Shown here in pieces: positions 5,551-36,561 of a DNA stretch of 44,673 nucleotides (position 1 is the first letter of the stretch; every line of letters starts with the position of its first letter). Source of the DNA: Pseudodesulfovibrio sp. (lineage in GTDB: Bacteria > Desulfobacterota > Desulfovibrionia > Desulfovibrionales > Desulfovibrionaceae). The notes beneath the pieces were generated by a model. The model searched no databases, was not told the DNA's origin, and saw only the letters and a list, made by a program, of their open reading frames with translations. A program made the translations under genes and the position numbers. The stretch lies in contig NZ_JAQUWN010000008.1 in the NCBI RefSeq assembly GCF_028692895.1, forward strand, positions 1 through 44,673, in the 5' to 3' direction.

Positions 5551-5638
5551 AAATCCTCCATATCCAAAAGCGGATTCGGGGAATACCCGGGTGACTGGCG
5601 GACGGAAATCCAGAGCCCGTCCACCAAGTGGAAACGGC

Positions 5639-5682
5639 GATTTATGGTTTAGTGTGGTAAAAGTCAACCGCCGTTCGGTCAA
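5639..5682 (-). promoter_or_regulatory. Possible speA promoter
   Basis: On the minus strand two near-consensus -35 boxes lie close together: TTGACC (5682-5677) and TTGACT (5667-5662). The matching -10 hexamers at 17-base spacing are weak: TACCAC (5659-5654) and TAAATC (5644-5639). The region is AT-richer than its surroundings and would leave a leader of about 90 bases before speA. Confidence 0.35.
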
Positions 5683-5741
5683 GAAGGATATTCTTTTTTT
5701 CGCAGCGGCGGAAGCCCCCGTCCGGCGCGGGATCAAGCCGG

Positions 5742-7813: not shown

Positions 7814-7860
7814 GGCTCCTTCCTTACGCATTGCGGCGCGGCCTGAAAAGCCGCCTCCGT

Positions 7861-7890
7861 CTTCTTTAACAGCTTTTAACATCTTTTATC
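7861..7890. promoter_or_regulatory. Three tandem decamers, OmpR/CpxR-type operator
   Basis: Three copies of a 10-bp unit are exactly in phase: CTTCTTTAAC, AGCTTTTAAC and ATCTTTTATC. Read on the minus strand they become GATAAAAGAT, GTTAAAAGCT, GTTAAAGAAG, close in form to the GTAAA-N5-GTAAA box of CpxR-like regulators. One-helical-turn spacing is the hallmark of tandem OmpR-family sites. They lie 48 bases upstream of the regulator start and 53 bases upstream of the efflux operon start. Confidence 0.7.
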
Positions 7891-7900
7891 ACGCGCGAAA

Positions 7901-7906
7901 AACAAT
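7901..7906 (+). promoter_or_regulatory. Possible -10 of the RND operon
   Basis: AACAAT matches TATAAT at four of six positions and lies about 10 bases after the decamer array. The -35 position at 17-base spacing falls inside the array and has no TTGACA-like hexamer, which would fit a promoter that needs the bound regulator. A Shine-Dalgarno (GGGGAG) stands before the ATG at 7943. Confidence 0.35.
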
Positions 7907-7942
7907 CCGGCCCCCCCGGCGGATAGAAGGGGAGCACAGATC

Positions 7943-9427: not shown

Positions 9428-9431
9428 TCCC

Positions 9432-10697
9432 ATGACGCTTTTTTCGCGATTTTCGGCCGGAACAGGCCTCAAGATAGCCGTCCCCCTCGTCATCCTCATC
9501 CTGGCGGGCGCCGGGGGCTACGCCCTGATCGCCACCGCGCCCAAGGCCCGGCGGATGCCGCCGGTGACGGCCGCGCCCACGGTGGAGACCGCCGCCTTCA
9601 CGCGCGGGAGCCATCCGGTGACCCTCTCGGTCATGGGCACGGTGGTGGCCGCCCACGAGATTTCGCTCACGCCCCAGGTGGAGGGCAAGATCGTCGAGAC
9701 GGCCAAGGCCTTCGTGCCCGGCGGGTTCTTCGCCAAGGGCGAGGAGATGCTGCGCATCGACCCCAGCGACTACGAGCTGGCCCTGCGCGAGGTGAAGGCC
9801 GACGTGGCCGACGCCGAATACGACCTCAAGGTGGAGCTCGGCTACCAGAACGTGGCCGCCCGCGAGTGGAAGCTGCTCCGGCAGTCGGCCAAGGGGACCA
9901 TGCAGGACGCCGACCTGGCCCTGCGCAAGCCCCACCTGGAAAAGGCCAAGGCGGACCTGGAGGCGGCGCGGGCCAGGCTGGCCCAGGCCGAGCTCGACCT
10001 CTCGCGCACCACCATTGTCGCGCCCTTCCCGGCCGTGGTCGAGTCCGTGGCCGCCAACCTCGGGGCCACGGTCTCCAAGCAGGAGACCCTGGCCACCCTG
10101 GTGGGCACCGAGGAATTCTGGGTCCAGGCCACCGTGCCCGTGGACCGGCTGGACCGCATCCGCCTGCCCGGCGCGGACAACGCGGCCGGGGCCGACGCCG
10201 TGGTCGTCAGCGGGACCAACGGCCTGACCTCCCGGCGCGCGGGCGCGGTCATCCGGCTGCTTCCCTCTCTGGAGAGCGAGGGGCGCATGGCCCGCGTGCT
10301 CGTCTCGGTGCGCGACCCCCTGAACATCAAGGGCGACCCGTCCGTGCGGCCGCTGCTGCTCGGCAGCTACGTCAAGGTGCTCATCGACGGCGGCGAGGTG
10401 ACGGACTCCTTCGCCATCCCGCGCAAGGCGTTCCGCGACAACGGCAAAATCTGGGTCCTGGGGAGCGACGGCAAGATGGAAATCCGCAGCGTCGCCCCGG
10501 TCTGGCGCGACGCCGAGACCGTGCTGCTCACCGAAGGGCTGGCCGAGGGCGAGCAGGTGGTCCTCTCCTCCATCAACGCGCCGCTCGACGGCATGCGCCT
10601 GGAGTCCGCGTCCGTGAAGGCGGCCGCGAGCCCGGAACCCGGCGGCGGGTCGGACGTGGCCAACGCGACCCCGGAGGGCGGCAGCCATGACAACTAG
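9432..10697 (+). CDS. RND efflux periplasmic adaptor (HlyD/AcrA family)
   Basis: Membrane fusion protein of 421 residues that links the RND pump to the outer membrane channel. An N-terminal membrane anchor or signal segment (about 12-35) precedes a lipoyl/barrel-sandwich half with LTPQVEGKIVE and PGGFFAKGEEMLRIDP, a helical hairpin around residues 110-195, the second lipoyl half SRTTIVAPFPAVVES, and beta-barrel and membrane-proximal domains. A Shine-Dalgarno AAGGG precedes the ATG. The last codons overlap the start of the pump gene by 11 bases. The substrate cannot be told from sequence. Confidence 0.92.
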   Translation: MTLFSRFSAGTGLKIAVPLVILILAGAGGYALIATAPKARRMPPVTAAPTVETAAFTRGSHPVTLSVMGTVVAAHEISLTPQVEGKIVETAKAFVPGGFFAKGEEMLRIDPSDYELALREVKADVADAEYDLKVELGYQNVAAREWKLLRQSAKGTMQDADLALRKPHLEKAKADLEAARARLAQAELDLSRTTIVAPFPAVVESVAANLGATVSKQETLATLVGTEEFWVQATVPVDRLDRIRLPGADNAAGADAVVVSGTNGLTSRRAGAVIRLLPSLESEGRMARVLVSVRDPLNIKGDPSVRPLLLGSYVKVLIDGGEVTDSFAIPRKAFRDNGKIWVLGSDGKMEIRSVAPVWRDAETVLLTEGLAEGEQVVLSSINAPLDGMRLESASVKAAASPEPGGGSDVANATPEGGSHDN

Positions 10698-19704: not shown

Positions 19705-20955
19705 ATGAACGAGCAGGAACGGAAACGGCGGGGCAACCCCCTGGCTTCCCCGGAGGAGCTTTCGCGACGCATTGCCATCGTGGACGCCAAGGGCAAGTTC
19801 GCGGTGGCGGCGGGCATTCTCCTGGCCGTGGTCCTGGTGGGCTGGAGCGTCTTCGGGTCCGTGCCGGAGATGGTGCTGGGCTCGGGCATCCTGGTCCCGC
19901 CCGACGGGCTCATGGACGTGGTCGCCCTGGGCCGGGGCCAACTGACCGAGGTGGACGCGGCCCCCGGCGACACCGTGTCGAGCGGCGACATCCTGGCCCG
20001 CGTCTCCATGCCCGAGCTGGAGTCCGAGCGCCAGTCCATACTGGCCGGGCTCCGGAACGCCAAGCTCCGGACCGCCGAGCGCGAGCGACATTACGCCCTG
20101 GCCCTGGACATGCAGGGCCGCAACGGCGACGAGCGCATCCGCCAGCTTCGTTCCCGCATGGCGTACCTCCAGCAATATTTCGATTCCCTTCAAAAAAAGA
20201 CTCCCGAGGCAGGGGGGCAAGACCGTTCCTCCGCCGGGGAGGTCGAGGCCGGACGCAAGGACATGCAGTCCGTGCTGGCCGACATCAACGACTGCAAGCT
20301 GAGGATCGCCGAGGTCCGGGCCGCCGGGCTCGACCTGGAGGGCAGGGCCGAGCGTGACGCCCTGGAGGGCCGTCGCCAGGAGAGCGAGCTGGAGCTCGCC
20401 CTGGAAGGCGTGGAGCGGCGGTTGCAGCTTTTCACCAAGGTGCGCAGCCCCTACGACGGGGTGGTGGTGGACATGGACGTGGAGCGGGGCGACTATGTCT
20501 CGCCGGGCATGTCCCTGCTCACGCTGCGGCCCGTGGAGTCGCCCCTGGAAGCCTCGCTGCTCTTTCCGGCCGAGGTTGGCAAGCGGATCAGGCCCGGCAT
20601 GGTGGCCTACGTCTATCCCTCCACCGCGTCCAAGGAGGAGTACGGTTGCATTTACGGCCTGGTCTCCTCGGTGGGCGAGTACCCGGCCTCGGCCGAGTCG
20701 CTGATGAAGTCCATCGGTTCCCGGCAACTGGTCAGCTCGCTGCTCGGGCAGGGGGTGACGATCATGGCCCGCGTCTCCCTTTTGCGCGACCCGGAGACGG
20801 CCACGGGCTTCAAGTGGTCCTCGTCCGACGGGCCGCAGGACGTCGCCATCGACGCGGGCACGGTCTGCACGGGCAACGTGGTGCTCCGGCGCAGCCGCCC
20901 CGTGGATTTGGTCTTCCCGAAATTTTCCGGGATGCTGGGGCTGGCCGAACCATGA
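19705..20955 (+). CDS. NHLM-type peptide export adaptor (HlyD-like)
   Basis: 416-residue membrane fusion protein resembling the secretion protein of NHLM (nitrile-hydratase-leader microcin) export systems. It has a basic cytoplasmic N-terminus (NEQERKRRGNPLASPEEL), one membrane segment at about 33-52, a lipoyl half with GRGQLTEVDAAPGDTVSSGD, a coiled-coil region (about 110-235) and the second lipoyl half TKVRSPYDGVVVDMDVERGD. The PLASPEEL-type start and the lack of a signal peptide fit that family. Its stop overlaps the sigma factor start (ATGA). The partner exporter genes lie at 22098 and 24279. It would bridge the exporter towards the outer membrane; no dedicated outer membrane protein is in this block. 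Confidence 0.85.
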   Translation: MNEQERKRRGNPLASPEELSRRIAIVDAKGKFAVAAGILLAVVLVGWSVFGSVPEMVLGSGILVPPDGLMDVVALGRGQLTEVDAAPGDTVSSGDILARVSMPELESERQSILAGLRNAKLRTAERERHYALALDMQGRNGDERIRQLRSRMAYLQQYFDSLQKKTPEAGGQDRSSAGEVEAGRKDMQSVLADINDCKLRIAEVRAAGLDLEGRAERDALEGRRQESELELALEGVERRLQLFTKVRSPYDGVVVDMDVERGDYVSPGMSLLTLRPVESPLEASLLFPAEVGKRIRPGMVAYVYPSTASKEEYGCIYGLVSSVGEYPASAESLMKSIGSRQLVSSLLGQGVTIMARVSLLRDPETATGFKWSSSDGPQDVAIDAGTVCTGNVVLRRSRPVDLVFPKFSGMLGLAEP

Positions 20956-21476
20956 GGATGCCGCCCGCCGCCCGCACCCCCCTGAGCCAGGCCGTGTTCC
21001 ATCGGCTCTACCGCGAGCATGCCGGGCCGCTGTGCGCCTACCTGACGCGCTGCCTGCGCGGCGACGCGGCAGAGGCCGAGGGCGTCGTCCAGGACGCCTT
21101 CCTCAAGGCCTGGGAGAAGCGCGCGGACCTGCGCGAGGAGGCTGCCTTCAAGCCTTGGGTCTATACCATCGCCCTGAACGTGCTGCGCCAGCGCAAGCGG
21201 CGGCTCCGGCCCCTGGCCGTGGAGTCGGTGGAGGCCGAGTCCGGCCGTCCCTCGCCCGAGCGTCAGGCGCAGGACCGCCAGGAGCTGGCCCGGGCGCTGG
21301 ACGCGCTGGACGCCCTGCCCGACGAGCAGCGCGAGGCCGTGCTCCTGGTGCGCATGGAGAACCTGAAGTTCCGCGAGGCCGCCGACGTCCTCGGCGTGCC
21401 CGAGAATACGGTCAAGACCCGTGTCCGCCGGGGCCTTCTGGCCATGGCGGCGGAACTCGGCCTCGATTCCCTGTAG
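20952..21476 (+). CDS. ECF-type RNA polymerase sigma factor
   Basis: 174-residue sigma-70 family protein with regions 2 and 4 only, hence ECF. Region 2: FHRLYREHAGPLCAYLTR, VVQDAFLKAWEKR, WVYTIALNVLRQRKRR. Region 4: LPDEQREAVLLVRMENLKFREAADVLGVPENTVKTRVRRG. It begins in the ATGA overlap with the adaptor gene and is therefore translated with it. No recognisable anti-sigma gene follows. Probable targets are the neighbouring NHLM genes or its own operon, by position only. Confidence 0.9.
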   Translation: MRMPPAARTPLSQAVFHRLYREHAGPLCAYLTRCLRGDAAEAEGVVQDAFLKAWEKRADLREEAAFKPWVYTIALNVLRQRKRRLRPLAVESVEAESGRPSPERQAQDRQELARALDALDALPDEQREAVLLVRMENLKFREAADVLGVPENTVKTRVRRGLLAMAAELGLDSL

Positions 21477-21496
21477 ATTTTCCCGAAAACCCGGAA

Positions 21497-21525
21497 GGCC
21501 GGAACCCCACGACAGGATTCCGGCC
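21497..21525. terminator. Hairpin between convergent genes
   Basis: Perfect 8-bp stem GGCCGGAA/TTCCGGCC (21497-21504, 21518-21525) with a 13-base loop, 20 bases after the sigma factor stop and in the gap towards the convergent small acidic gene. There is no strong T-run on either side, so termination is likely but weak or factor-dependent. Confidence 0.45.
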
Positions 21526-21648
21526 CTCTCTGAGAGGTAGGTTGCGGACGGCTGGTCGTGCCGCCCTTGTACTCCGGAGATGCGGCGGGCGGCCCGATAG
21601 TTTCAGGCCGCGCCCGGCTCGGCGGCCTTGCGGCAGGCCGGAACGCCG

Positions 21649-21918
21649 TCAGAAGAGGTCCGTGTCGTCGTGGCCGGGAGGGTACGTCCCGGCTGCCGCC
21701 AGCATGTCCAGGTCGTCGTCGGAAAGGGCTTCGTCCACCCGCTTGAGGGCGGCCTCCAGCTCCCGCGACAGCGGCGGGGCGGGCGGGGACTCGTCACGGA
21801 GGCGGGCCGTGGCTTCCCATGCCCGGCGCAGGGCCTCGGCCTCCTTGGGGTCGTCCACGTCGCGCAGCAGTTCCGCGAGGAGCGATCGGTCTTCGTCTTG
21901 ATTGAAATCGTTAGCCAT
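21649..21918 (-). CDS. Candidate NHLM-exported peptide precursor
   Basis: 89-residue acidic protein without a recognised homologue, placed between the sigma factor and the C39 exporter and facing away from the exporter. Near its C-terminus it has LSDDDLDMLAAA, which fits the leader pattern LSDEELEAVAGG of NHLM/double-glycine precursors position by position: Leu at -12, Leu at -7 and Leu at -4, with Ala-Ala in place of Gly-Gly. Cleavage there would leave a 13-residue core, GTYPPGHDDTDLF, with no Cys or Ser. The preceding 64 residues are helix-prone and charged. ATG at 21918 is preferred over the 130-residue form from 22041. Alternatives: an anti-sigma or other small regulator. Confidence 0.6.
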   Translation of the reverse strand: MANDFNQDEDRSLLAELLRDVDDPKEAEALRRAWEATARLRDESPPAPPLSRELEAALKRVDEALSDDDLDMLAAAGTYPPGHDDTDLF

Positions 21919-22097
21919 GTTGATTCGGCCTTGCCTTGCCAGGGCGTTCCCGGACGGTGAGAATCCTCGGTGTCGATCCAGGTGATGCGCCGGTTGCGGA
22001 AAAAGTTTCACGTTGCCCCAAAAAAGAATGGGGTTTGACAAAACGTACGCTCTGATTCAATTTGGGCCAATCGTCAACCTTTTCCCTGCGATATGGC
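21919..22097. promoter_or_regulatory. Divergent control region of peptide and exporter genes
   Basis: On the plus strand a perfect TTGACA (22035-22040) can pair with weak -10 sequences 16-17 bases on (about 22057-22063), about 35 bases before the exporter ATG. Just before it is a 5-bp inverted repeat CCCCA/TGGGG (22016-22020, 22029-22033) with an A-rich 8-base loop, enclosed by ACGTT/AACGT (22010-22014, 22042-22046). The nested repeats overlap the -35 and could be an operator. No clear sigma-70 promoter is seen for the small acidic gene on the minus strand; it may use the ECF sigma. Confidence 0.5.
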
Positions 22098-24278
22098 ATG
22101 CGCAAGACCGGACAACCGAAACGGGCGAGGACCCCGACCGTGCTCCAGATGGAGGCGGTGGAATGCGGGGCCGCCGCCCTCGGCTCCGTGCTCGGCTACC
22201 ATGGCGCATACGTCCCGCTCTCCACCCTGCGCGAGGAATGCGGCGTCAACCGCGACGGCTCCCGCGCGGCCAACGTGCTGCGCGCGGCCAGGCTCCACGG
22301 CCTGGAGGCCCAGGGGTTCCGGCGCGACGCCGAGACCATGCTCGAAAAGACCGCCCTCCCGGCCATCCTCTTCTGGCGGCACTCCCACTTCGTGGTCCTG
22401 GAGGGCGCGGACGAGCGGCACGTCCACCTGAACGACCCGGCCAGCGGCCACCGCCGCATCACCCGCGAGGAGCTGGTCCGCGACTATTCCGGGGTGGTCC
22501 TGGAGCTCGCGCCCGGCCCGGATTTCCGCAAGGGCGGCGCGCCCTACCGCCTCTGGGCGGGGCTGCGGGAGCGGCTGGCCGGAGAGCACGAGGCCCTGTG
22601 GCTCATCGTCGCCCTCTCCCTGCTCCTGGTCCTGCCCGCCCTGACCATCCCGGTATTCTCCCGGGTTTTCGTGGACAAGGTGCTGGTGGGCCGCCACCTG
22701 GACTGGGCGGCCCCCCTGGTCTTCGCCATGGTCCTGACCCTGCTCGTCCAGGGCTCCCTGTCCTGGATACAGCAGCACTACATCCTCAAGATGCAGACCA
22801 AGCTGACGCTGACGTCGTCCAGCCGGTTCCTGTGGCACGTCCTGCGGCTCCCGGCCCGGTTCTTCGCCCAGCGCTACGCCCCGGAGATCACCCAGCGCTG
22901 CCGCCTCAACGAGACCGTGGCCGGGCTGCTCTCGGCCCGGTTCACCACCGGCGTGCTCAACCTCTTCCTGGCGGGCTTCTATGTGGCGGCCATGTTCTTC
23001 TACGACTGGCTGCTCACCCTGTTCGCCCTGGCCGCCGTGGCGCTCGACGCGGCGGTGCTCCGGGCGGCCGCCCCCCGGCGGCACGACGAGTTCATGCGCC
23101 TGGCCCAGGAGCAGGGCAAGGTGGACGCCATGGCCATGGCCGCGCTCCAGACCGTGGACACCATCAAGGCCCAGGGCATGGAGGAGGACGTCTTCGCCTT
23201 CTGGGCCGGGCACCACGCGGGCGCGGTCCGCTCGGCCCAGCGGCTGGGCGCGCTCTCCAACCTCATGGGCCTGGTCCCGGTCGTCCTGACCACCCTGGCC
23301 GCCGTGGCCATCCTCGGGGCCGGGGCCGTGCGGGTCATGCAGGGGCACCTGACCCTGGGCGAGCTGGTGGCCTTCCAGGCCTTTGCGGCCATGCTCTTCG
23401 CCCCGGTGGGCGAGCTGACCGCCCTGGCCGGGGCCCTGCAGGACGCGGGCGCGTCCATGCGGCGGCTGGACGACGTCCTCAAACACCCGGCCGAGGCCGA
23501 CCCCGCGTCGCTCCTGGCCGACGGCGAGACCGTCCTGTTCGCGGCGGGCGCGGTGAACGGCGGCCTGGAGTTCGACGACGTCACCTTCGGCTACAGCCCC
23601 CTCGGGCCACCGCTCATCGAGCGCTTTTCCCTCTCGCTCGCGCCTGGCGCGCGGGTGGCCCTGGTGGGCGGCTCGGGCTCGGGCAAGTCCACCCTGGCCC
23701 GGCTGGCGGCCGGGCTCTACAAGCCGTGGTCCGGCGCGGTGCGCATCGACGGCGTTCCGCGCGAGGACCTGCCGTCCTTCGTGGTCCGCGACGCCGTGCA
23801 GATGGTGGACCAGCAAATTTTTCTCTTTTCCGGCACCGTGCGCGAGAACCTGACCCTGTGGGACCCCACCGTGGCAGACGACGCCCTGGTGCGCGCCTGC
23901 CAGGACGCGGGCGTCTACGACGTTGTGGCCGGGCTGCCCGGCGGCATGGACGGCGCGCTCCTGGAGAACGGGGCCAACCTTTCGGGCGGGCAGCGCCAGT
24001 GCCTGGAGATCGCCCGCGCCCTGGTCAGCGCCCCGGCCATCCTCATCCTGGACGAGGCCACCAACTCCCTGGACACGGTCAAGGAGGCCGAGGTGGACTA
24101 CAATATCCGCCAGCGCGGCTGCACCTGCCTCATGGTGGCCCACCGGCTTTCCACCATCCGCGACGCGGACGAGATCCTCGTCCTGGACCGCGGCCGGGTG
24201 GCGGAGCGGGGCACCCACGAGTCCCTCATGGCCCTGGGCGGCCGCTACGCCGAACTCGTCCGCTCGGAGGGCCGGTAG
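22098..24278 (+). CDS. NHLM-type exporter with C39 peptidase, permease and ATPase
   Basis: 726-residue bacteriocin-type exporter that cleaves the leader and exports the peptide. The N-terminal C39 cysteine peptidase has Gln17 and Cys23 in LQMEAVECGAAAL, His97 in RHSHFVVLEG and Asp113 in LNDPASG, so the triad is complete. Six-helix ABC permease domain (about 155-440), then ATPase with Walker A GGSGSGKSTLARL, signature LSGGQRQCLEIARA and Walker B ILILDEATNSLD. ATG at 22098 is chosen since homology starts there; a TTG at 22062 falls within the promoter. The stop directly abuts the next gene's ATG. First of the exporter trio. Confidence 0.92.
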   Translation: MRKTGQPKRARTPTVLQMEAVECGAAALGSVLGYHGAYVPLSTLREECGVNRDGSRAANVLRAARLHGLEAQGFRRDAETMLEKTALPAILFWRHSHFVVLEGADERHVHLNDPASGHRRITREELVRDYSGVVLELAPGPDFRKGGAPYRLWAGLRERLAGEHEALWLIVALSLLLVLPALTIPVFSRVFVDKVLVGRHLDWAAPLVFAMVLTLLVQGSLSWIQQHYILKMQTKLTLTSSSRFLWHVLRLPARFFAQRYAPEITQRCRLNETVAGLLSARFTTGVLNLFLAGFYVAAMFFYDWLLTLFALAAVALDAAVLRAAAPRRHDEFMRLAQEQGKVDAMAMAALQTVDTIKAQGMEEDVFAFWAGHHAGAVRSAQRLGALSNLMGLVPVVLTTLAAVAILGAGAVRVMQGHLTLGELVAFQAFAAMLFAPVGELTALAGALQDAGASMRRLDDVLKHPAEADPASLLADGETVLFAAGAVNGGLEFDDVTFGYSPLGPPLIERFSLSLAPGARVALVGGSGSGKSTLARLAAGLYKPWSGAVRIDGVPREDLPSFVVRDAVQMVDQQIFLFSGTVRENLTLWDPTVADDALVRACQDAGVYDVVAGLPGGMDGALLENGANLSGGQRQCLEIARALVSAPAILILDEATNSLDTVKEAEVDYNIRQRGCTCLMVAHRLSTIRDADEILVLDRGRVAERGTHESLMALGGRYAELVRSEGR

Positions 24279-27137
24279 ATGGTCCGCGCGGCGCCGAGGC
24301 GGCGCATCGAGCTGGACGACACCGGCATGGTCTGGCGTGTCGAGGCCGGGGCGGCCAGCGTCATGGTCGAGCCCGCGCCCGAGGCGGACCTGCCGCGCGC
24401 CTCCGCGACCCTGCGCCAGGCGCGGGAGGGGGACTGCATCTTCGGTTTTTCCTCTGGCGTCCTTTCGGGCCGCGTCCGCGTGTTTCTCGAATCCTCGCCC
24501 GGCACCCGGCTGGTCCCCATGATGGCCGAGGACTTCGTCCGCCGCTGCCGGGACAATCCGGAGGAGGCGGCCGCCATGCTCTCCGGCGCGGTGCGCCAGG
24601 TGGCCGCCCACGTCAGCCCGGACATTCCGCCGCCGTCCGTGGCCAAGATCCTCGCGCCCGGCGGAGAGTTCCGCCTGCCCTCCGGCGCGCGGGCCGCGGC
24701 CCTGTCCGAGCTGTGGTTCCGGGTGGAGGAGGGGAGCGCGGCCTACGGCGGGAGCGAGGCCCTGGGGCGGCTCGGCCGAGACGGCTTCCACCCCCTGGCG
24801 GGCAACCTCTGGGTGGAGATGGCCGGGGACGGGCGGCTGGCCTGCGTCTCCACCGGGGACGTGATCCGGGACGGGACCTTCCTCGACGCCTTTTCCGGCT
24901 TCGCGGCCATGGCCGTGGCCATGACCTTCGAGCGGTTTTCCGGCATGGCGCTGGCGAAGCTCCGCCACCTGGTGGAGAGCTCGCGCCATCGCGGCGAGGC
25001 GTTCTCCCGCGCCCTGGGCCGGGCCGCCGCCGTGGTGGACCCGGCGGCCGGGGCCGGAGCGGGCGCGCCGGGGGCCATCGAGGCCGTGCGCCTGGTGGCC
25101 GGGCGGCTGGGGGCAAGAGTGGAAGCGCCGCCCCGGCTGCGGCCGGACCTGGACGGTCAGGTCGAGGACATCCTGTCCCGCAACGGATTCTTCTCCCGCG
25201 AGGTGGACCTGTCGGGCGAGTGGTTCGCGGACGACAGCGGGCCGCTGCTCGGCTTCATGGCGTCGGGCAGGGGCCGGGAGGCCGTGGCCCTGCTGCCCGG
25301 GCGCAAGGGGTACGTCCTGGCCGATCCGTCGGGCGGCCGCCGGAAGGTCACCCCCGAGCTCGCCGCCGCCCTGGAGGGCCGGGCGCTCCAGTTCTATCCT
25401 CCGTTGCCCGACGGGGCGGACTCGCCCCTGGCCCTGGCCCGGTTCGCCTGCCGGGGCTGCGGCCGCGAGCTCGCGCTGGTGGCGGCCATGGGGTTCTTCG
25501 GCGGGCTGGCCGGGTTCGGCCTGCCCCTGGCCATGTCCGCCACCGTGGACCGGGTCATCGCCAACGGCGAATACGGCATGCTCGGCCAGATCGTCTTCGG
25601 CCTGCTCATGCTCGCCCTGGGCGCGGGCGTGTTCCGGATGGTCAAGAGCGCGGCCCTGCTGCGCGGCCAGACCCTGGCCCAGGTGGCCCTCCAGTCGGCC
25701 ATGTTCGGGCGGCTGCTCCGGCTGCCCATGGCGTTCCACCGGCGGTTCGCGGCGGGCGACCTTTCCAACCGGGCCATGGCCGTGGACGACATCCGCCACT
25801 CCCTGTCCGGGACCATGCTCGCCGGACTGCTCTCCTCGGCCTTCGCCCTGACCAGCCTGGCGCTTCTGGCCGTCTTTTCCTGGAAGCTGTCGCTGGTCGT
25901 GCTCGGCATCGTCGCCGCCTCCCTGGCCCTGACCGGGCTGTCCCTGAAGCGCCAAGCTCGCGCCCAGGGCCGGGCCCAGGACGCCATCGGCCACCTGGCC
26001 GGGCTGGAGCTCCAGCTCGTCACCGGCGTCAACAAGCTGCGCGCCGCCGGGGCCGAGGCCGGGGCCTTCGCCCGCTGGATGGAGAACTTCGCGGAGCTGC
26101 GCCGGATCGCCTACGCCATCGGCCGGGGCCGCAACGCGGTCACGGTCCACGCCACGGGGCTGCCGCTCTTCTGCTCCATCGCGGTCTTCGGCCTGTTCAT
26201 CCTCTCCGGACTGTACCGGGAGCTCTCGCTCGGCAGCTTCCTCTGCTTCAACGCCGCCCTGGGCCAGCTCACCGGAGCCGTGGCTTCCCTGGCCCAGGCC
26301 GGGACGTCGCTCCTTTTCCTCCAGCCCCTGTACCGCCGGGCCAAACCCATTCTGGAGGCCCGGCCCGAGAGCCACGCCGCCCTGGAGGACCCCGGCCCGC
26401 TCCTGGGCGCGGTGGAGGCCGTGGGCGTGGACTTCGCCTACCCCGGCGCGGCCGGGCCCACCCTGCGCCAGGTCGGCTTCCGGGCCGCGCCCGGCGAGTT
26501 CGTGGCCATCGTCGGGCCCAGCGGGTCCGGCAAGTCCACGCTGCTCAAGCTCCTGCTCGGGTTCCACCAGCCCTCGGCCGGGGCCGTGCTCTACGACGGC
26601 AAGCCCCTGCGCCGCCTGGACCCGGTCAAGGTCCGTCGCCAGATCGGCTCGGTCATCCAGAACGGCGAGCTCATCCAGGGCAACATCTATTTCAACATCA
26701 TGGGCGCGGCCAGGGACGCGGACGAGGAGGACGCCTGGGAGGCGGCCCGGCTCGCGGCCGTGGACGACGACATCCGGGCCATGCCCATGGGGATGCACAC
26801 CTTCGTGCCCCACGGCGGCTCGACCTTCTCCGGCGGGCAGAGGCAGCGGATCATGCTCGCCCGCGCCCTGTCGCGGAAGCCGCGCGTCTTCCTGCTGGAC
26901 GAGGCCACCTCCAGCCTGGACAACGCCAGCCAGGCCACGGTCATGCGCAACCTGCGCGGCCTCAACGCCACGCGAATCGTGGTCGCCCACCGCCTCTCCA
27001 CCGTGCGCGACGCGGACCGCATCTACGTCATGGACCGGGGCGCGGTGGTGGAGTCCGGCACCTTCGGCCAGCTCATGGAGCGGGACGGGCTGTTCGCCCG
27101 GCTGGCCTCGCGCCAGATGGACGGGAGCGGGCGATGA
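24279..27137 (+). CDS. Second NHLM-type ABC permease/ATPase
   Basis: 952-residue protein resembling the second ABC subunit of NHLM systems. A long N-terminal part of about 380 residues without a catalytic C39 triad contains a stretch reminiscent of a cyclic-nucleotide-like or degenerate peptidase-like domain; then a membrane domain starting near CRGCGRELALVAAMGFFGG and an ATPase with Walker A GPSGSGKSTLLKL, signature FSGGQRQRIMLARA and Walker B VFLLDEATSSLD. Both ATPases of the pair are intact. It starts one base after the previous stop and ends in an ATGA overlap with the next gene. Probably it forms a heterodimer with the C39 exporter; this follows from the family, not from sequence. Confidence 0.88.
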   Translation: MVRAAPRRRIELDDTGMVWRVEAGAASVMVEPAPEADLPRASATLRQAREGDCIFGFSSGVLSGRVRVFLESSPGTRLVPMMAEDFVRRCRDNPEEAAAMLSGAVRQVAAHVSPDIPPPSVAKILAPGGEFRLPSGARAAALSELWFRVEEGSAAYGGSEALGRLGRDGFHPLAGNLWVEMAGDGRLACVSTGDVIRDGTFLDAFSGFAAMAVAMTFERFSGMALAKLRHLVESSRHRGEAFSRALGRAAAVVDPAAGAGAGAPGAIEAVRLVAGRLGARVEAPPRLRPDLDGQVEDILSRNGFFSREVDLSGEWFADDSGPLLGFMASGRGREAVALLPGRKGYVLADPSGGRRKVTPELAAALEGRALQFYPPLPDGADSPLALARFACRGCGRELALVAAMGFFGGLAGFGLPLAMSATVDRVIANGEYGMLGQIVFGLLMLALGAGVFRMVKSAALLRGQTLAQVALQSAMFGRLLRLPMAFHRRFAAGDLSNRAMAVDDIRHSLSGTMLAGLLSSAFALTSLALLAVFSWKLSLVVLGIVAASLALTGLSLKRQARAQGRAQDAIGHLAGLELQLVTGVNKLRAAGAEAGAFARWMENFAELRRIAYAIGRGRNAVTVHATGLPLFCSIAVFGLFILSGLYRELSLGSFLCFNAALGQLTGAVASLAQAGTSLLFLQPLYRRAKPILEARPESHAALEDPGPLLGAVEAVGVDFAYPGAAGPTLRQVGFRAAPGEFVAIVGPSGSGKSTLLKLLLGFHQPSAGAVLYDGKPLRRLDPVKVRRQIGSVIQNGELIQGNIYFNIMGAARDADEEDAWEAARLAAVDDDIRAMPMGMHTFVPHGGSTFSGGQRQRIMLARALSRKPRVFLLDEATSSLDNASQATVMRNLRGLNATRIVVAHRLSTVRDADRIYVMDRGAVVESGTFGQLMERDGLFARLASRQMDGSGR

Positions 27138-28267
27138 GGGGGCTGGCCGCCTGGATCGTCTTCGGCCTCTCGGCCCTGGCCTGCCTGGTCTGGATCGGGG
27201 GCGGCGTGCGCGACGAGCTGCGCGAGGACCACGTCTTCCACCACGTCCTGGAGGACCGTCTGGCCCTGGCCGCCGCGTCGGGCGGGGAGCTGCGCATCGG
27301 CGTGGCGGGCGACTTCTCGGCCCATCCCGACATCCTGCGCGGGGCCGAGCTGGCCGCCGCCCGGCTCAACGCCGAGGGCGGCGTGCTGGGCCGCAAGGTC
27401 GTCCTGGCCTTGCGCGACGACCACGGCGCCGGCGAGGGCGCGCTGGAGGCGGCCCAGGCCTTCGCCCTGGACCCGGCCATTCCCTTCGTGGTCGGCCACA
27501 CCAGCCTCCGGCTCCTGGCCGGGGTGGCCCAGAACTACGCCTTTTACGGCGTGCTCGCGCTCTCGCCCAACACGGCGGGCACGGGCTACTCCACCGGCGC
27601 GTTTCCCCTGGTCTTCGGCAACGCCATGGACCCGGCCGATGTCGGCCGGGCCGCCTTGGACCTGGCCCTGCGCAAGGGCTGGAAGCGGGTGGGGCTGATT
27701 TACGGCGCGGGCGACCAGGGCGCGCGCCGGGCCCGCGAGTTCGAGTCGCTGGCGGACAAGCGCGGCCTGCGGGTGGCCCTCTCCTTCGGTTTCGAGGGCA
27801 GGGGCTCGGGCGTGGCCCGGCACATGGCGCGCTGGCGGCGCGAGCTGGACCTGGACGCCGTGTTCCTGGGCGTGGGCCGCGCGGACGAGCTGCCCCTCGT
27901 GGCCGCCTGCCGGGCCGTGGGCATGGGCTGCCCCTTCGTCTTTCTCGGCGAGCGGCCCGAGATCGCCCCGGCCAGCCGCCCGCTTTACGGCGTCCTCTAC
28001 TGCCCGGAGCAGGACCCGTCCGAGGGGTACGCGGCCTTTGCCGGGGAGTATGAGGCGCGCTTCCGCCGCCCGCCGGGGCGCGACGCCCTGCTCGGGTGCG
28101 ACGCCGTGCTCCTGCTGGGCCGGGCGGCCTCCCGCGCCGGGACCTGCGTGCCGGCGAAGGTGGCCGATGCCCTGCGCAAGGGCGTTCCCGGCTCCCTGTC
28201 CGGGACCCTGCGCTTCGACGCGCGCGGCTGCGCGGTCAAGCGCCCGCCCCGGTTCGTCGAGTTCTGA
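27134..28267 (+). CDS. LivK-like periplasmic binding protein coupled to NHLM exporter
   Basis: 377-residue protein of the type 1 periplasmic binding fold (branched-chain amino acid/amide receptor family). It has an N-terminal membrane segment (about 4-24, possibly a signal anchor; an imperfect lipobox-like LSALAC is present), then LRIGVAGDFSAHPDILRGAELAAARLNAEGG, the substrate-lobe motifs DDHGAGEG and VVGHTS, and the second lobe RKGWKRVGLIYGAGDQGARRAREF. The ATG lies in the stop of the second ABC gene. Import permeases of the Liv type are not nearby. It could sense a small ligand or serve as a receptor for the exporter; that is inference. Confidence 0.85.
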   Translation: MRGLAAWIVFGLSALACLVWIGGGVRDELREDHVFHHVLEDRLALAAASGGELRIGVAGDFSAHPDILRGAELAAARLNAEGGVLGRKVVLALRDDHGAGEGALEAAQAFALDPAIPFVVGHTSLRLLAGVAQNYAFYGVLALSPNTAGTGYSTGAFPLVFGNAMDPADVGRAALDLALRKGWKRVGLIYGAGDQGARRAREFESLADKRGLRVALSFGFEGRGSGVARHMARWRRELDLDAVFLGVGRADELPLVAACRAVGMGCPFVFLGERPEIAPASRPLYGVLYCPEQDPSEGYAAFAGEYEARFRRPPGRDALLGCDAVLLLGRAASRAGTCVPAKVADALRKGVPGSLSGTLRFDARGCAVKRPPRFVEF

Positions 28268-29464: not shown

Positions 29465-29549
29465 GTTGGGATTGCTACTCTAAGGAGTGATGGACGACGC
29501 GCCCCGTTGCGGGCCGCAAGGTCGCCCCGCCGGGGCCGAAGTGAGACGT

Positions 29550-32111
29550 ATGGCAGCAGACGACAAGAAGAGCATCCAGAACATCCAGGACGAACTTTTC
29601 CCGGACGCCGGCAAGCCGTCGCCGGGGGCGAAACCCGCCGCAGGGGAGGCCGCGCAGGCCCGGCCCGGCGACAGGCCGGCTCCGGTTGCGCCCGGCGGCG
29701 CGAAGGCTCCGGCAGGCGGTCAGGCGCAGACCAGGCCCGCTGCCGACGGCAAGCCCGGCCCGCAGGCCCAGGCGTCCGCCTCCCCGGCGGCGAAGCCCGC
29801 CCCGGCCTCCGGGCCGCAGGCGGCGGAGGTGGCCAAGGGGCCGGCCCCCAAGGCCGCTCCGGCGGCCGCGCCGAACCCGGCTCCCGGCGGACCCGCCGGA
29901 GGGCAGGCCGCCGGCCAGGGCGGTCCGGGACAGGGCGCGGGCCAGCGTCCGGCCGCGCCGGACATGGACAACGACGAGCGCCTCTCGCCCAAGGACATCG
30001 ACTATCAGCCGCCCCTGGTCATCTGCCTGTCCATCATCAGCCGGTTGATGGGCAAGCCCGTCTCCTCGGCCACCCTCAAGGCGGGCATCCCGCAGCAGGG
30101 CGGGGTCATCACGGCCGCCGCCATCGTCCGGGCGGCCGAGCGCATCGGCATCACGGCCAAGACCGTGCACCGCGAGAGCCTGCGCAAGATCACCAAGCTG
30201 GTCATGCCCTGCATCCTGCTCCTGCGCGGCGGCAACGCCTGCGTGCTCCTGGATACCGACGAGAAGACTGCCCGCGTGGTCATTCCCGGCCACGGCATGG
30301 ACGAGACCGAGACCCCGCTGGAAAAGCTGGAGGAGGAATACACCGGCTACGCCATCTTCTGCCACCGCATGTCCAAGCTGGACAAGCGCGCCAGCGAGCT
30401 CAAGCTGGTCAAGACCAAGCGCTGGTTCTGGGGCGTCATCCTCCGCTTCTGGCCCATCTACCGCCACGTCTTCGCGGCCTCGATCATGACCAACCTGATC
30501 ATCATCGCCGCGCCGCTGTTCACCATGAACGTGTACGACCGGGTCATCCCGAACAACGCCACGGACACCCTCTGGGTCCTGGCGCTGGGCATCGGCATCG
30601 CCTACGTCTTCGACTTCCTGCTCAAGAACCTGCGCTCCTATTTCGTGGACGTGGCGGGCCGCAACGCGGACGTGCTCATCGGCAGCCGGATCATGCAGCA
30701 CCTCATGTCCGCCCGGCTCGACTACATGCCGGAATCCGCGGGAGCGGTGGCCAACAACGTGCGCGAGTTCGAGTCGCTGCGAGAGTTCTTCAGCTCCTCC
30801 TCCCTGGTGGCGCTCATCGACCTGCCGTTCCTGTTCATGTTCATCGGGCTGATCCACTACATCGGCGGACCCGTGGCCTGGCCGGTCTTCATCGCCGTGC
30901 CCGTGGTGGTCCTCTTCGGGCTCTTCCTCCAGGTGCCGTTCCAGCACATCATCGAGAGCCACTACAAGGAATCCACCCAGAAATACGCGCTGCTCTACGA
31001 GATCGTCCAGGGACTGGAGACCATCAAGACGTCCATGGCCGAGGGCCGAATGCAGGCGCGCTGGGAGAACGTGGTCGGCCTGACCGCCCTGTCCAACAGC
31101 CGGACCAAGGTCATGGCCAACCTCTCCATCACCTTCTCGGTCTTCGTCACCCAGGTGGTCTCCGTGGCCATCGTCATCACCGGCGTCTACCTCATCGGCA
31201 AGGGCGAACTGACCGTGGGCGGGCTCATCGCCTGCAACATCCTGGCGGGACGGTCCATGGCCCCGCTTTCGGCCGTGGCCGGTCTGCTGGCCCGGTTCCA
31301 GCAGTCGCGCATGGCCCTCAAGGCCCTGGACCTGCTGATGGAGATGCCCTCCGAACGGCCCGAGGACAAGGAGACCTTCCACTACGGCGACATGGAGCCC
31401 TCCATCCAGGTGGAGAACGTCTCCTTCAGCTATCCCGGCACGGACAAGGCGGTCCTGAACGAGGTCAACCTGCTCATCCGGCCGGGAGAGAAGGTCGGCG
31501 TGGTGGGGCGCACCGGCGCGGGCAAGTCCTCGCTGGGCAAGCTCATCGTCGGCCTCTACCAGCCCGTGCAGGGCGCGGTGAAGGTGGGCAACATCGACCT
31601 GCGCCAGCTCGACACCGCGGTGCTGCGGCGCAAGGTGGGCTACATCTCCCAGGATTCGCTGCTCTTCTACGGCACGCTGAGGGACAACATCGCCTTCGGC
31701 CTGCCCGAGGCGGACGACCAGTCCATCAAGCACGCGGCCGAGATCGCGGGCGTCACGGATTTCGTCAAGGACCACCCGGCCGGGTACGGCATGATGGTGG
31801 GCGAGCGCGGCTCCTCGCTGTCCGGCGGGCAGCGACAGGCCGTGTCCATCGCCCGGGCCATCCTGCCCGATCCGGAGATCCTGATAATGGACGAGCCCTC
31901 CAGCAACATGGACAACCAGTCGGAGTACCGGTTCAAGGCCAAGCTGGAGCCGTTCATCAAGGACAAGACCGTCCTGGTCATCACCCACCGCCACTCCATG
32001 CTCGACATGGTGGATCGGCTGGTGATCATGGACAAGGGGCGCGTCGTGGTGGACGGCCCGAAGCAGCAGGTCCTGGACGGGCTGAGGTCCGGCAGGATCC
32101 GGGTCATGTGA
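29550..32111 (+). CDS. lapB: Type I secretion ABC transporter, LapB-like
   Basis: 853-residue inner membrane exporter for the large adhesin. Residues about 20-135 are a low-complexity Ala/Pro/Gly-rich extension, unusual for the family. Then a C39-like domain (PPLVICLSIISRLMGKPV) that has lost the catalytic His region (ACVLLD where the His would stand), as in LapB/HlyB types that do not cleave. Membrane domain from about RFWPIYRHVFAASI, then ATPase: Walker A GRTGAGKSSLGKL, signature LSGGQRQAVSIARA, Walker B ILIMDEPSSNMD. ATG at 29550 is chosen; an earlier GTG/ATG at 29487-29490 is in frame but has poorly spaced AAGGAG. The next gene follows after 7 bases. Confidence 0.9.
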   Translation: MAADDKKSIQNIQDELFPDAGKPSPGAKPAAGEAAQARPGDRPAPVAPGGAKAPAGGQAQTRPAADGKPGPQAQASASPAAKPAPASGPQAAEVAKGPAPKAAPAAAPNPAPGGPAGGQAAGQGGPGQGAGQRPAAPDMDNDERLSPKDIDYQPPLVICLSIISRLMGKPVSSATLKAGIPQQGGVITAAAIVRAAERIGITAKTVHRESLRKITKLVMPCILLLRGGNACVLLDTDEKTARVVIPGHGMDETETPLEKLEEEYTGYAIFCHRMSKLDKRASELKLVKTKRWFWGVILRFWPIYRHVFAASIMTNLIIIAAPLFTMNVYDRVIPNNATDTLWVLALGIGIAYVFDFLLKNLRSYFVDVAGRNADVLIGSRIMQHLMSARLDYMPESAGAVANNVREFESLREFFSSSSLVALIDLPFLFMFIGLIHYIGGPVAWPVFIAVPVVVLFGLFLQVPFQHIIESHYKESTQKYALLYEIVQGLETIKTSMAEGRMQARWENVVGLTALSNSRTKVMANLSITFSVFVTQVVSVAIVITGVYLIGKGELTVGGLIACNILAGRSMAPLSAVAGLLARFQQSRMALKALDLLMEMPSERPEDKETFHYGDMEPSIQVENVSFSYPGTDKAVLNEVNLLIRPGEKVGVVGRTGAGKSSLGKLIVGLYQPVQGAVKVGNIDLRQLDTAVLRRKVGYISQDSLLFYGTLRDNIAFGLPEADDQSIKHAAEIAGVTDFVKDHPAGYGMMVGERGSSLSGGQRQAVSIARAILPDPEILIMDEPSSNMDNQSEYRFKAKLEPFIKDKTVLVITHRHSMLDMVDRLVIMDKGRVVVDGPKQQVLDGLRSGRIRVM

Positions 32112-32118
32112 GGTGGGC

Positions 32119-33447
32119 ATGCGCAAGGAAAAATTCGCTAGGGAAACGCTGCTGTTCATGTCCGAGGTGGACCAGGCCATGTACGGCCGGGGCCGCCGCA
32201 TGGCCTACATGCTGTCCACCGCCATCCTGTTCATGCTGGCGGGCTTCCTGGTCTGGGCCAAGCTGGCCGTGCTCGACGAGGTCACGCGCGGCTTCGGCAA
32301 GGTCATCCCGTCCCAGCGGGTGCAGGAGATTCAGAACCTGGAGGGCGGCATCCTGAGCGAGATCTACGTCCAGGAAGGCCAAATCGTGCAGAAGGACGAC
32401 CTGCTCTGCCGGCTGCGCAACGAGCAGGCCGCGAGCTTCCTGCGCGACGCCCAGACCAAGGCGCTGGAGCACCGGGCCGCCATCGTCCGGCTCACCGCCG
32501 TGGTAGAGGACCACGCCCCGGTCTTCGATCCGGAGCTCAAGGAAAAGGCCCCGCAGCTCCTCCAGGACCAGTTGCGCATCTTTCATGCCCAGAAGGACCA
32601 GCTCGCCATCGAGCTCGGCGTCCTGAGGGACCAGTACGAACAGAAGGAATCGGAAGTCACCGAGATGGAAGGGCGGCGCAAGCAGCTCAAGAAATCCCTG
32701 GAGGTGGCCCAGAAGCAGCGCGACATCGCAAAGCCCCTGGTGGAGAAGCACATCCACTCCGAGCTGGACTACCTGGCCCTGGAGCAGAAGGTGCTGGAGC
32801 TCAAGGGCGACGTGGACGCCCTGACCCTGGGGCTGCCCCGGACCCGGCGGGCGGCCAAGGAGGCCCTGGGCCGCATCGAGCAGCGCAAGGCCGAGTTCCG
32901 GAGCCAGGCCCTGGAGGAGATCAACGAGCGGCGGCGCGAACTGCTCTCCATCAACGAGACCCTGGCCGCCGGGGGCGACCGGGTGACCCGCACCGACGTG
33001 CGCTCGCCGGTCAAGGGCGTGGTCAAGCACATCCTCATCAACACCCTGGGCGGCGTGGTCAAGCCGGGCGAGTCCATCATGGAGGTGGTGCCGCTCGACG
33101 ACTCCCTCCTGGTCGAGGCCAACATCAAGCCCTCGGACATCGCCTTCCTCCACCCGCAGCAGAAGGCCAAGGTCAAGATCACGGCCTACGACTTCTCCAT
33201 CTACGGCGGGCTGGACGGCACGGTGGAGAACATCAGCGCGGACACCATCCAGAACGAAAAGGGCGAGAGCTTTTACCTGGTCAAGGTGCGCACCAAGAAC
33301 AACGCCATCCTCTATCGGGGCGAGCGGCTGCCCATCATGCCGGGCATGACCGCCCAGGTGGACATCCTGACCGGAAAGAAGTCCGTGCTCGACTACCTGC
33401 TCAAACCCATCCTCAAGGCCAAGCAGAACGCGCTGCGGGAACGCTAG
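32119..33447 (+). CDS. lapC: Type I secretion periplasmic adaptor, LapC/HlyD-like
   Basis: 442-residue membrane fusion protein for adhesin export. Short cytoplasmic N-terminus, one membrane helix (about 28-50), AprE/HlyD hallmark VIPSQRVQEIQNLEGGILSE, a long coiled-coil region (about 100-280) and the second lipoyl half RTDVRSPVKGVVKHI, closing with the beta-barrel LPIMPGMTAQVDILTGKKSV. ATG at 32119 has a GAGG site; a GTG at 32113 is a weaker choice. It works between LapB-like ABC and the TolC-like protein encoded at 38042. Confidence 0.92.
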   Translation: MRKEKFARETLLFMSEVDQAMYGRGRRMAYMLSTAILFMLAGFLVWAKLAVLDEVTRGFGKVIPSQRVQEIQNLEGGILSEIYVQEGQIVQKDDLLCRLRNEQAASFLRDAQTKALEHRAAIVRLTAVVEDHAPVFDPELKEKAPQLLQDQLRIFHAQKDQLAIELGVLRDQYEQKESEVTEMEGRRKQLKKSLEVAQKQRDIAKPLVEKHIHSELDYLALEQKVLELKGDVDALTLGLPRTRRAAKEALGRIEQRKAEFRSQALEEINERRRELLSINETLAAGGDRVTRTDVRSPVKGVVKHILINTLGGVVKPGESIMEVVPLDDSLLVEANIKPSDIAFLHPQQKAKVKITAYDFSIYGGLDGTVENISADTIQNEKGESFYLVKVRTKNNAILYRGERLPIMPGMTAQVDILTGKKSVLDYLLKPILKAKQNALRER

Positions 33448-33460
33448 CGAGGGGACGTCC

Positions 33461-34177
33461 ATGGCCCGCGCCGCATCCATACACCAGGCGGTCACCGGGG
33501 CGTTCTGCGCGCTGCTGCTGGCCCTTTGCCTGGCTCGGGGGGCGTCGGCCGGGGCCCCGGCCCCGCCCGCGGACGGCAAGTCCGCCGGGCCCCGCCTCTT
33601 CGGGACCGTGGAGTTCAAGGGCAACCTGGAAAAACTGCCCAAGTGGACCGGCGTGCTCAAGAAGATGGCGATCTGGAAGGGATACTTCAACTCCCCGGAC
33701 ATGGCCAAGCTGCCGTCCAGGAACGCCTGGGTGAAGCTCAAGGCCGAGCTTGCGGACAAGCCGGAAATGGACAAGCTCAAGGGCGTGAACAAGTTCTTCA
33801 ACCAGTGGCCCTACCGGCTGGACGCGGCCAACTACGGTGAGAGCGACTACTGGGCCTCGCCACAGGAATTCATCAAGAAATCAGGTGATTGCGAAGACTA
33901 CGCCATCGCCAAGTACTATGCGCTGAAGGAGCTGGGCTTCTCCGAGGAAAGGATGCGCATCGTGGCGGTCCGCGACATGATCCGGAACATCGGACATGCG
34001 ATCCTGGCCGTCTATCTGCCCGACAACATTTACATCCTCGACAACCAGACGGTCATGGTGCTGCCGGACGTCCGGTACAAGCACTACATGCCGCAGTATT
34101 CCGTGAACGAGAAGTTCCGCTGGATGCACGTGCCCGTGAGCAAGAACACGGCCTTCCAGCGCGCCAAGAAGCAATGA
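33461..34177 (+). CDS. lapG: LapG-like periplasmic cysteine protease
   Basis: 238-residue bacterial transglutaminase-like cysteine proteinase (BTLCP), the family of LapG. Signal peptide (CALLLALCLARGASA), then catalytic Cys144 in SGDCEDYAIAKYYAL, His179 in GHAILAVY and Asp194 in ILDNQT. LapG cuts the N-terminal retention module of the adhesin and so releases it from the surface; calcium and c-di-GMP-bound partner protein control it. Here the adhesin's N-terminus is outside the window, so the target site cannot be checked. Start has a GAGGGGAC site; it lies in the export operon, before the HD-GYP-like gene. Confidence 0.92.
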   Translation: MARAASIHQAVTGAFCALLLALCLARGASAGAPAPPADGKSAGPRLFGTVEFKGNLEKLPKWTGVLKKMAIWKGYFNSPDMAKLPSRNAWVKLKAELADKPEMDKLKGVNKFFNQWPYRLDAANYGESDYWASPQEFIKKSGDCEDYAIAKYYALKELGFSEERMRIVAVRDMIRNIGHAILAVYLPDNIYILDNQTVMVLPDVRYKHYMPQYSVNEKFRWMHVPVSKNTAFQRAKKQ

Positions 34178-34226
34178 CGGGCCGAGGTCTTCGCGCCGGT
34201 CCGAAAACAACCAGATGGAGTGAACC

Positions 34227-36311: not shown

Positions 36312-36336
36312 CGGCCGCGCTCCATCCGGTTGCACA

Positions 36337-36367
36337 GGGCCCCGGCGCATCGCCGGGGCCCTTTTTT
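36337..36367 (+). terminator. Intrinsic terminator of the adhesin export operon
   Basis: Perfect 11-bp stem GGGCCCCGGCG/CGCCGGGGCCC (36337-36347, 36351-36361) with a 3-base loop followed by six T (36362-36367), about 25 bases after the stop of the HD-GYP-like gene. Confidence 0.95.
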
Positions 36368-36561
36368 CGCCTGCCGCAAGGGCCGGGCCCAGGCGGGGGG
36401 GCGTGGCCGGACGGCTTGAGGATTGCGCCTTTCGGGGCTATGTCTGGATCCTGTGGACGGCGGTCCCGTCATTTCCCCCAGGTCCGGCAGGGCAGGTTGC
36501 CACCACCGGGCTTGTGGCGTATAGCCCCCTTCCCCCGAACAACGCCGACACGGAAACGAAA

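What the first reader, a model, noticed from the sequence alone, without database searches (positions are those of the whole stretch)
21649..21918. Candidate precursor peptide with double-Ala leader and Cys-free 13-residue core
LSDDDLDMLAAA matches the NHLM/double-Gly leader register with Leu at -12, -7 and -4, while Gly-Gly is Ala-Ala. The tail GTYPPGHDDTDLF has no Cys or Ser and so cannot form lanthionines. The rest is acidic and helix-prone and does not look like nitrile hydratase, so this could be a new precursor family. The gene is divergent from its exporter.
Basis: partly seen in the sequence, partly recalled or inferred. Interest (0 to 1): 0.75.

Follow-up and report, generated by a model that had tools for sequence, protein, structure and literature searches.

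The report
Export leader left by lost protein
The small gene looks like the export tag of a calcium-binding (RTX) secreted protein whose body is missing in this strain; its relatives point to a secretion network in which one regulator switches on such tagged proteins around the genome, so the 13-residue tail is more likely a scar than a new antibiotic-like peptide.

Summary
The ORF is real: 89 aa, ATG at 21918, divergent from a C39/NHLM exporter. Its leader is genuine but matches no known RiPP family. Three same-genus homologues share the ~85-aa leader (site AAAG) but continue into 245-264-aa RTX repeat proteins. Genes with such leaders carry an ECF-type promoter (TGAAACTWT-N12-14-GCRTC): 28 sites in six genomes against 2 for the reversed pattern; 20 of the 26 outside this genome precede RTX reading frames, all 20 with a leader. 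This genome has two sites: one 65 bp before the ORF, one orphan 43 bp after its stop with no cargo gene behind it. A double-GNAT gene present in all five cargo genomes searched is absent here. Exporter trees place the window among RTX-carrying loci. Best reading: a leader stub left when RTX body and GNAT were lost. Ala-Ala is a normal site here. Most novel open reading: short ECF-linked leader proteins, beside the sigma gene in 11 of 11 other sigma-bearing NHLM loci detected, are export-coupled anti-sigma factors.

The parts
21649..21918 (-). 89-aa leader protein (the finding): leader, residues 1-76, plus 13-residue tail
21691..21726 (-). C39 recognition motif LSDDDLDMLAAA (Leu-12, Leu-7, Leu-4; Ala-Ala at -2/-1)
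   Evidence: consensus positions as in PMC6363468 (passages seen)
21652..21690 (-). tail GTYPPGHDDTDLF; in homologues the RTX body starts here
21984..22010 (-). P1, ECF-type promoter TGAAACTTTTT..GCATC, 65 bp upstream of the ATG
21579..21605 (-). P2, orphan match to the same promoter, 43 bp after the stop, without a cargo gene behind it
21494..21528 (.). 15-bp hairpin without T-tract between P2 and the end of the sigma gene
20952..21476 (+). ECF sigma factor, convergent with the leader gene
19705..20955 (+). NHLM HlyD-type secretion protein (TIGR03794)
22098..24278 (+). ABC1: C39 peptidase/permease/ATPase (TIGR03796), Cys/His/Asp contexts present; a TTG at 22062 would extend it
24279..27137 (+). 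ABC2: NHLM permease/ATPase (TIGR03797)
27134..28267 (+). periplasmic-binding-protein-like (Peripla_BP_6) component, also in L007, L008 and L009

Best explanation
The ORF is the N-terminal export leader of an RTX-type secreted protein belonging to an ECF-sigma-controlled, NHLM/C39-exported secretome. In relatives the neighbouring sigma presumably recognises TGAAACTWT-N12-14-GCRTC and turns on RTX genes, some next to the exporter and some elsewhere in the genome; each product has an N-terminal double-Gly or double-Ala leader that ABC1 would bind and cut before HlyD/ABC1/ABC2 export. In this strain the RTX body of the gene next to the exporter, the linked GNAT gene and, to judge from P2, at least one further cargo gene have been lost. 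What remains is promoter P1, the intact leader and a 13-residue tail, then orphan P2. The C39 domain most likely still recognises the leader; the short tail is a scar and not a modified bioactive core. Shown by computation: homology, promoter matches, absence of RTX body and GNAT, placing in exporter trees. Inferred: sigma-promoter pairing, C39 cleavage, direction of loss, lack of function of the 13-mer.
For: Homologues in G005, G020 and G029 share the leader (25 invariant columns) and continue as RTX proteins. In G020 four RTX genes with C39-type leaders lie between sigma and ABC1. Pattern search of six genomes: 28 sites against 2 control; 20 of 26 sites outside G000 precede an RTX frame, all 20 with a recognisable leader. 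G000 has only P1 and P2, also when one mismatch is allowed at spacer 13 (control then 1); estimated chance of a site like P2 in that gap is about 1e-6. GNAT: in 5 of 5 cargo genomes, 0 of 2 others, G000 and G009. ABC2 tree: window sister to L007+L008 (96/96), with RTX-bearing L090/L091 and then L009 outside. G005 has a comparable case: the promoter, a leader that looks Nif11-like by eye, about 20 residues and a stop (L116).
Against: No recognisable RTX repeat remains in the ORF or the gap, so the deletion is inferred from relatives; no intermediate state was found. Leader identities do not show decay (window to others 43, 48, 54%; among others 44, 47, 58%), which would suit continued function, although the window has the longest leader branch (1.61 against 1.23, 0.45, 0.23). 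Short leader proteins with similar tails exist beside ECF sigma genes elsewhere. P2 implies at least two losses. The ABC1 tree leaves the same-genus clade (94/94) unresolved, and both trees flag the window's letter make-up and long branches elsewhere. Six of 26 sites outside G000 precede no intact RTX gene.
Confidence: 0.75

Rival explanations
1. Genuine short-peptide precursor: the C39 domain cuts after AA and exports GTYPPGHDDTDLF as an unmodified signal or antimicrobial peptide.
For: Leader intact, its identities to relatives no lower than theirs to each other; P1 intact. Short tails after xAA|G or GG occur in other NHLM loci, some resembling it (L053 GIILPPLDETTR, L050 GIYLPPLSETTS, L009 GIFLPPEDRQ). 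The same genome has a second NHLM system with a 20-residue tail after LSGG (L084).
Against: The three orthologues found in the genus carry RTX bodies, not short cores; orphan P2 and absent GNAT indicate loss; no modifying enzyme recognised among the neighbours scanned.
Confidence: 0.12
2. The leader protein is an export-coupled regulator, an anti-sigma factor removed by the exporter it controls (FlgM-like logic), kept when the RTX cargo was lost. Not exclusive of the best explanation.
For: In 11 of 11 other NHLM loci with a detected ECF sigma gene a small leader-like protein lies beside it, five with a 4-nt stop/start overlap. L015/L018 proteins align with the window leader over 60 columns (hhalign probability 78%). 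No anti-sigma match among the neighbours scanned. The extended N-domain gave one match per genome, in the gene divergent from ABC1. The model shows four helices.
Against: The 11 loci are not all independent (L036, L043 and L044 are near-identical, L050/L053 close kin). No homology to anti-sigma factors; Foldseek finds nothing (low-confidence model, pTM 0.39). In the window the gene is convergent with sigma, not co-operonic; in sister species the domain is part of an RTX cargo. An A3 profile search of 395 genomes of the phylum gave nothing (uninformative, no known positive in the set).
Confidence: 0.2
3. Assembly artefact: repetitive RTX sequence collapsed in a draft assembly, leaving a false stub.
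For: The genome is a 132-contig draft and RTX repeats are repetitive.
Against: No RTX unit remains, the junction carries unique sequence including P2, and GNAT, which is not repetitive, gives no match in the whole genome.
Confidence: 0.05

Closest known systems
NHLP/Nif11-type precursors with NHLM export (Haft et al. 2010, PMC2887384; listing and a term search only)
   Same: NHLM HlyD/ABC1/ABC2 exporter; acidic leader ending in a C39 site; some relatives (two proteins of L009) have a Nif11 leader above the Pfam cut-off
   Different: window leader has no Nif11/NHLP hit, AA instead of GG, no modifying enzyme recognised, and the homologues' cargo is RTX repeats
RTX proteins of type 1 secretion systems (HlyA/serralysin type; general features recalled)
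   Same: Ca-binding nonapeptide repeats in homologues (PF00353); HlyD and ABC exporter
   Different: cargo carries an N-terminal C39-type leader and the exporter has an apparently active C39 domain, instead of an uncleaved C-terminal signal with a degenerate C39-like domain (latter recalled)
C39 substrates of LahT/ComA type (PMC6363468, passages seen)
   Same: hydrophobic -12, -7, -4 spacing
   Different: Ala-Ala at -2/-1 followed by Gly; GG, GA or GS is the motif named in the passage
FlgM, the anti-sigma factor exported by the flagellar secretion system (recalled; search listing only)
   Same: proposed logic only: regulator removed by the machine it controls
   Different: no homology sought or seen; other exporter and other sigma family

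Membership tests
Lineage-specific NHLM-exported RTX cargo (Desulfovibrionaceae) | homologous leader with C39 site | tested here: met
Lineage-specific NHLM-exported RTX cargo (Desulfovibrionaceae) | ECF-type promoter upstream | tested here: met
Lineage-specific NHLM-exported RTX cargo (Desulfovibrionaceae) | RTX repeats after the leader | tested here: not met
   none in the ORF or gap; PF00353 matches in the genome lie in large frames of C39, C64 and C128:39831-40508, plus one weak match on C23
Lineage-specific NHLM-exported RTX cargo (Desulfovibrionaceae) | GNAT partner in the genome | tested here: not met
NHLP/Nif11 RiPP precursor | match to an NHLP or Nif11 leader model | tested here: not met
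NHLP/Nif11 RiPP precursor | GG/GA/GS cleavage site | tested here: not met
   AAA|G
NHLP/Nif11 RiPP precursor | NHLM exporter next door | tested here: met
NHLP/Nif11 RiPP precursor | post-translationally modified core | not testable with these tools
   no modifying enzyme recognised among the neighbours scanned at 19.7-44.7 kb; genes left of 19.7 kb not scanned
ECF-linked short leader proteins (defined here) | short protein ending in a C39-like motif with a short tail, beside an ECF sigma gene and NHLM exporter | tested here: met
   in the window the two genes are convergent
ECF-linked short leader proteins (defined here) | sequence homology over the whole domain | tested here: inconclusive
   hhalign probability 78% with A3 over 60 columns, 72% with A4 over 25 columns at the site
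Anti-sigma factor | sequence match to an anti-sigma domain | tested here: not met
Anti-sigma factor | fold like a class I anti-sigma domain | tested here: inconclusive
   four helices, pLDDT 72, pTM 0.39; no Foldseek match with E below 4
Anti-sigma factor | binds and inhibits the cognate sigma | not testable with these tools
   needs a binding or reporter assay

The most novel reading that the evidence does not exclude
NHLM exporters of several phyla carry a dedicated ECF sigma whose inhibitor is a small protein with a C39-type leader. The exporter draws off and cuts this inhibitor, so cargo genes are transcribed only when the export machine is assembled and free. The window protein is this regulator, stripped of the RTX cargo to which it is fused in sister species.
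Probability: 0.18. Interest if true: 0.87.

Novelty: new variant of a known kind. Interest (0 to 1): 0.6.

Why it matters
NHLM exporters are annotated as bacteriocin exporters (model names). The relatives of this gene indicate that at least one branch, in Desulfovibrionaceae and a Lentisphaerota genome, carries RTX repeat proteins with peptide-type leaders and a linked acetyltransferase; in Desulfovibrionaceae the cargo is further united by a clear ECF-type promoter, so it can be found genome-wide from DNA alone. That makes cargo, leader code (AA as well as GG) and sigma specificity directly testable, and warns that short 'precursor peptides' beside such exporters can be stubs of lost proteins. 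If the short sigma-linked leader proteins prove to be exported inhibitors, this would be a secretion-coupled sigma switch in type 1 export.

Tried and rejected
Chance ORF: rejected. Known RiPP family: no hit. Anti-sigma by sequence or fold: no hit; the fold search rests on a low-confidence model. Acb2/Tad1 hairpin (E 0.11): below cut-off, discarded. Surviving RTX cargo elsewhere in this genome: the pattern searches give no third site; of the other RTX hits, C39 and C64 lie in large frames and C23 in a 114-aa ORF near a contig end, and I saw no C39 leader, though the start of the C64 frame lies at a contig end and was not resolved; the N-terminus of the window's own large RTX protein lies beyond the window and was not examined. 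Decay test by branch lengths: gyrB window 0.11 against G005 0.13, G029 dropped as too short and G020 a fragment; ABC1 window 0.30 against 0.04-0.09; leader window 1.61 against 1.23, 0.45 and 0.23; too few rows to decide. A first gyrB tree used a wrong frame for the window and was discarded. Phylum-wide search with A3: nothing, uninformative. Sigma-70/terminator scan: one weak promoter-like match on the + strand, no terminator. Two A1 hits in a sister genus (E about 1e-4) proved to be RTX proteins whose first ~60 residues resemble the leader without its site.

Literature: search listings, several of them capped, and term passages only; no paper was read whole. Nif11 + calcium-binding + leader: 0 papers; NHLP + sigma factor: 0; Nif11 + RTX: 3, none describing RTX cargo of NHLM exporters in the passages seen; of the third, PMC6363468, only Ala/Leu passages were seen. 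In PMC2887384 the words RTX, calcium, sigma, Desulfo, NHLM and hemolysin do not occur. The library is open-access only.

Full report
What is there. The ORF at 21649-21918 (-) is 89 aa, with LSDDDLDMLAAA at residues 65-76 and the tail GTYPPGHDDTDLF. Its neighbours are an NHLM HlyD protein, an ECF sigma factor on the opposite strand whose end lies 172 bp from the ORF's stop, and, divergently, ABC1 (C39), ABC2 and a periplasmic-binding-type protein. No Pfam or NCBIfam family matches the ORF.

Homologues have a body. A search of 60 genomes (G000, 35 others of its genus, 24 of its order) found the protein in G000 and three others of the genus: G005, G020 and G029. There a similar ~85-aa leader (43, 54 and 48% identical to the window's in pairwise alignment; 43-48% in the multiple alignment) continues for another 159-174 residues with RTX repeats, giving 245-264-aa proteins. 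The leaders share 25 invariant columns, among them W34, L70 and A74-G77. G020 has four such RTX genes and a double-GNAT gene between sigma and ABC1. In a sister genus (G109, G137) the gene divergent from ABC1 encodes an RTX protein whose first ~60 residues resemble the leader; a second leader ending VVGG or VIGG follows. A Lentisphaerota genome has four RTX genes beside its NHLM exporter; two were scanned and both have a Nif11 leader above the Pfam cut-off.

A promoter ties them together. Upstream regions share TGAAACTWT-N12-14-GCRTC. In G000, G005, G020, G029, G109 and G137 the pattern has 28 sites, its reversed control 2. Of the 26 sites outside G000, 20 have an RTX reading frame opening within 110 bp: G005 7 of 11, G020 6 of 6, G029 3 of 5, G109 3 of 3, G137 1 of 1. 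All 20 show a C39-type leader, 17 by the script's pattern and 3 by eye. The other six are a leader protein resembling a type III secretion rod protein (L105), a Nif11-like leader stub (L116), a broken leader/RTX gene (L117), a contig end (L110) and two genes without leader or RTX (L101, L124). Of the 16 same-genus RTX leaders 10 end in xAA|G, 1 in AAG|G and 5 in GG, so Ala-Ala is normal here. That the neighbouring sigma reads this promoter is inference from co-occurrence.

What this genome lacks. G000 has two sites and no third, also with one mismatch at spacer 13 (control then 1). P1 lies 65 bp before the ORF's ATG. P2 lies 43 bp behind its stop, with no cargo gene after it, only a 15-bp hairpin before the end of the sigma gene. 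The estimated chance of P2 arising in that gap is about 1e-6. A GNAT homologue is in all five cargo genomes searched and in neither G000 nor G009. Among 54 stretches checked by tblastn it occurred in four, all with leader-RTX cargo (L008 and L091 end before it, their genomes have it). In the ABC2 tree the window is sister to L007+L008 (96/96), with RTX-bearing L090/L091 and then L009 outside; one loss in the window lineage is simpler than three gains. The ABC1 tree agrees on the outer order but leaves the same-genus rows unresolved (94/94), and the program warns of letter make-up and long branches.

Does the stub still work? Leader identities are 43, 48 and 54% from the window to the others and 44, 47 and 58% among the others, so there is no clear sign of decay, though the window has the longest leader branch (1.61 against 1.23, 0.45 and 0.23). 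The exporter too has changed more in the window lineage (ABC1 74-77% to relatives, 87-88% among them). gyrB, usable for only one same-genus relative, shows no asymmetry. With four rows this is suggestive only: the stub may be a recent relic or may be retained for recognition or regulation.

A wider pattern. Among the 54 stretches, 11 NHLM loci outside the window's family have a detectable ECF sigma gene, and in 11 of 11 a leader-like protein of 64-107 aa (some starts chosen by me) lies beside it. Nine end in [LIV]xAAG motifs and two (L015, L018) in VGA; five overlap the sigma gene by 4 nt. They are not all independent: L036, L043 and L044 are near-identical and L050/L053 are close kin. Four distinct Clostridia members keep tails of similar pattern. 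The L015/L018 proteins align with the window leader (hhalign probability 78%); L050/L053 align only at the site (72%). In L009 an ECF gene lies two genes upstream of such a protein. This arrangement suits an anti-sigma factor with a leader, drawn off by the exporter. It rests on gene order and weak profile similarity: no anti-sigma homology, no fold match.

Verdict. The 13-residue 'core' is best seen as a scar of a lost RTX protein. The relatives matter more than the stub: an ECF-promoter-defined set of RTX proteins with C39-type leaders beside NHLM exporters. I found no description of it in ten searches of an open-access library, seen as listings and passages only; most subscription journals are not in it.

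Noticed in passing
L084 (G000:C22), 3846-10668: Second NHLM system in the same genome, with HlyD, ABC1, ABC2 and a precursor-like ORF ending KLSDDDLDNLSGG|RIVLHAIDGSRPGGPRRPIF.
   Followed up: partly
window 29487-44673: Adjacent large-adhesin type 1 secretion locus: ABC with weak C39 match, HlyD, BTLCP (LapG-like) protease, PAS-HD protein, MatE transporter, outer-membrane efflux protein, and a 1720-aa Cadherin/Big/RTX protein near the window end.
   Followed up: partly
L009 67-12092 and L097: Lentisphaerota locus with four RTX proteins (two scanned, both with Nif11 leaders), a GNAT, a short ISAA|GIFLPPEDRQ protein, NHLM exporter and an ECF sigma two genes upstream.
   Followed up: partly
L105 (G005): ECF-type promoter before a 92-aa protein with a leader-like LSNEELESISAA|G and a C-terminal half resembling the type III secretion rod protein YscI (E 4.5e-6, below Pfam cut-off).
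   Followed up: no
L116 (G005) and L117 (G029): A leader stub with about 20 residues after the site in G005, and a broken leader/RTX gene with a similar leader in G029: cargo loss may be recurrent.
   Followed up: partly
window 27134-28267; L007, L008, L009, L013, L014, L017, L030, L045, L051: A Peripla_BP_6-type protein related to the window's lies in 10 of the 54 stretches checked, the window included; its role is unexplained.
   Followed up: no
L007 3455-4339, L054 11490-12383, L009 4780-5685, L090 1295-2233: GNAT protein (two GNAT matches in the L054 copy) that goes with RTX cargo across two phyla; it might acylate the cargo, in the manner of toxin-activating acyltransferases (speculation).
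   Followed up: partly
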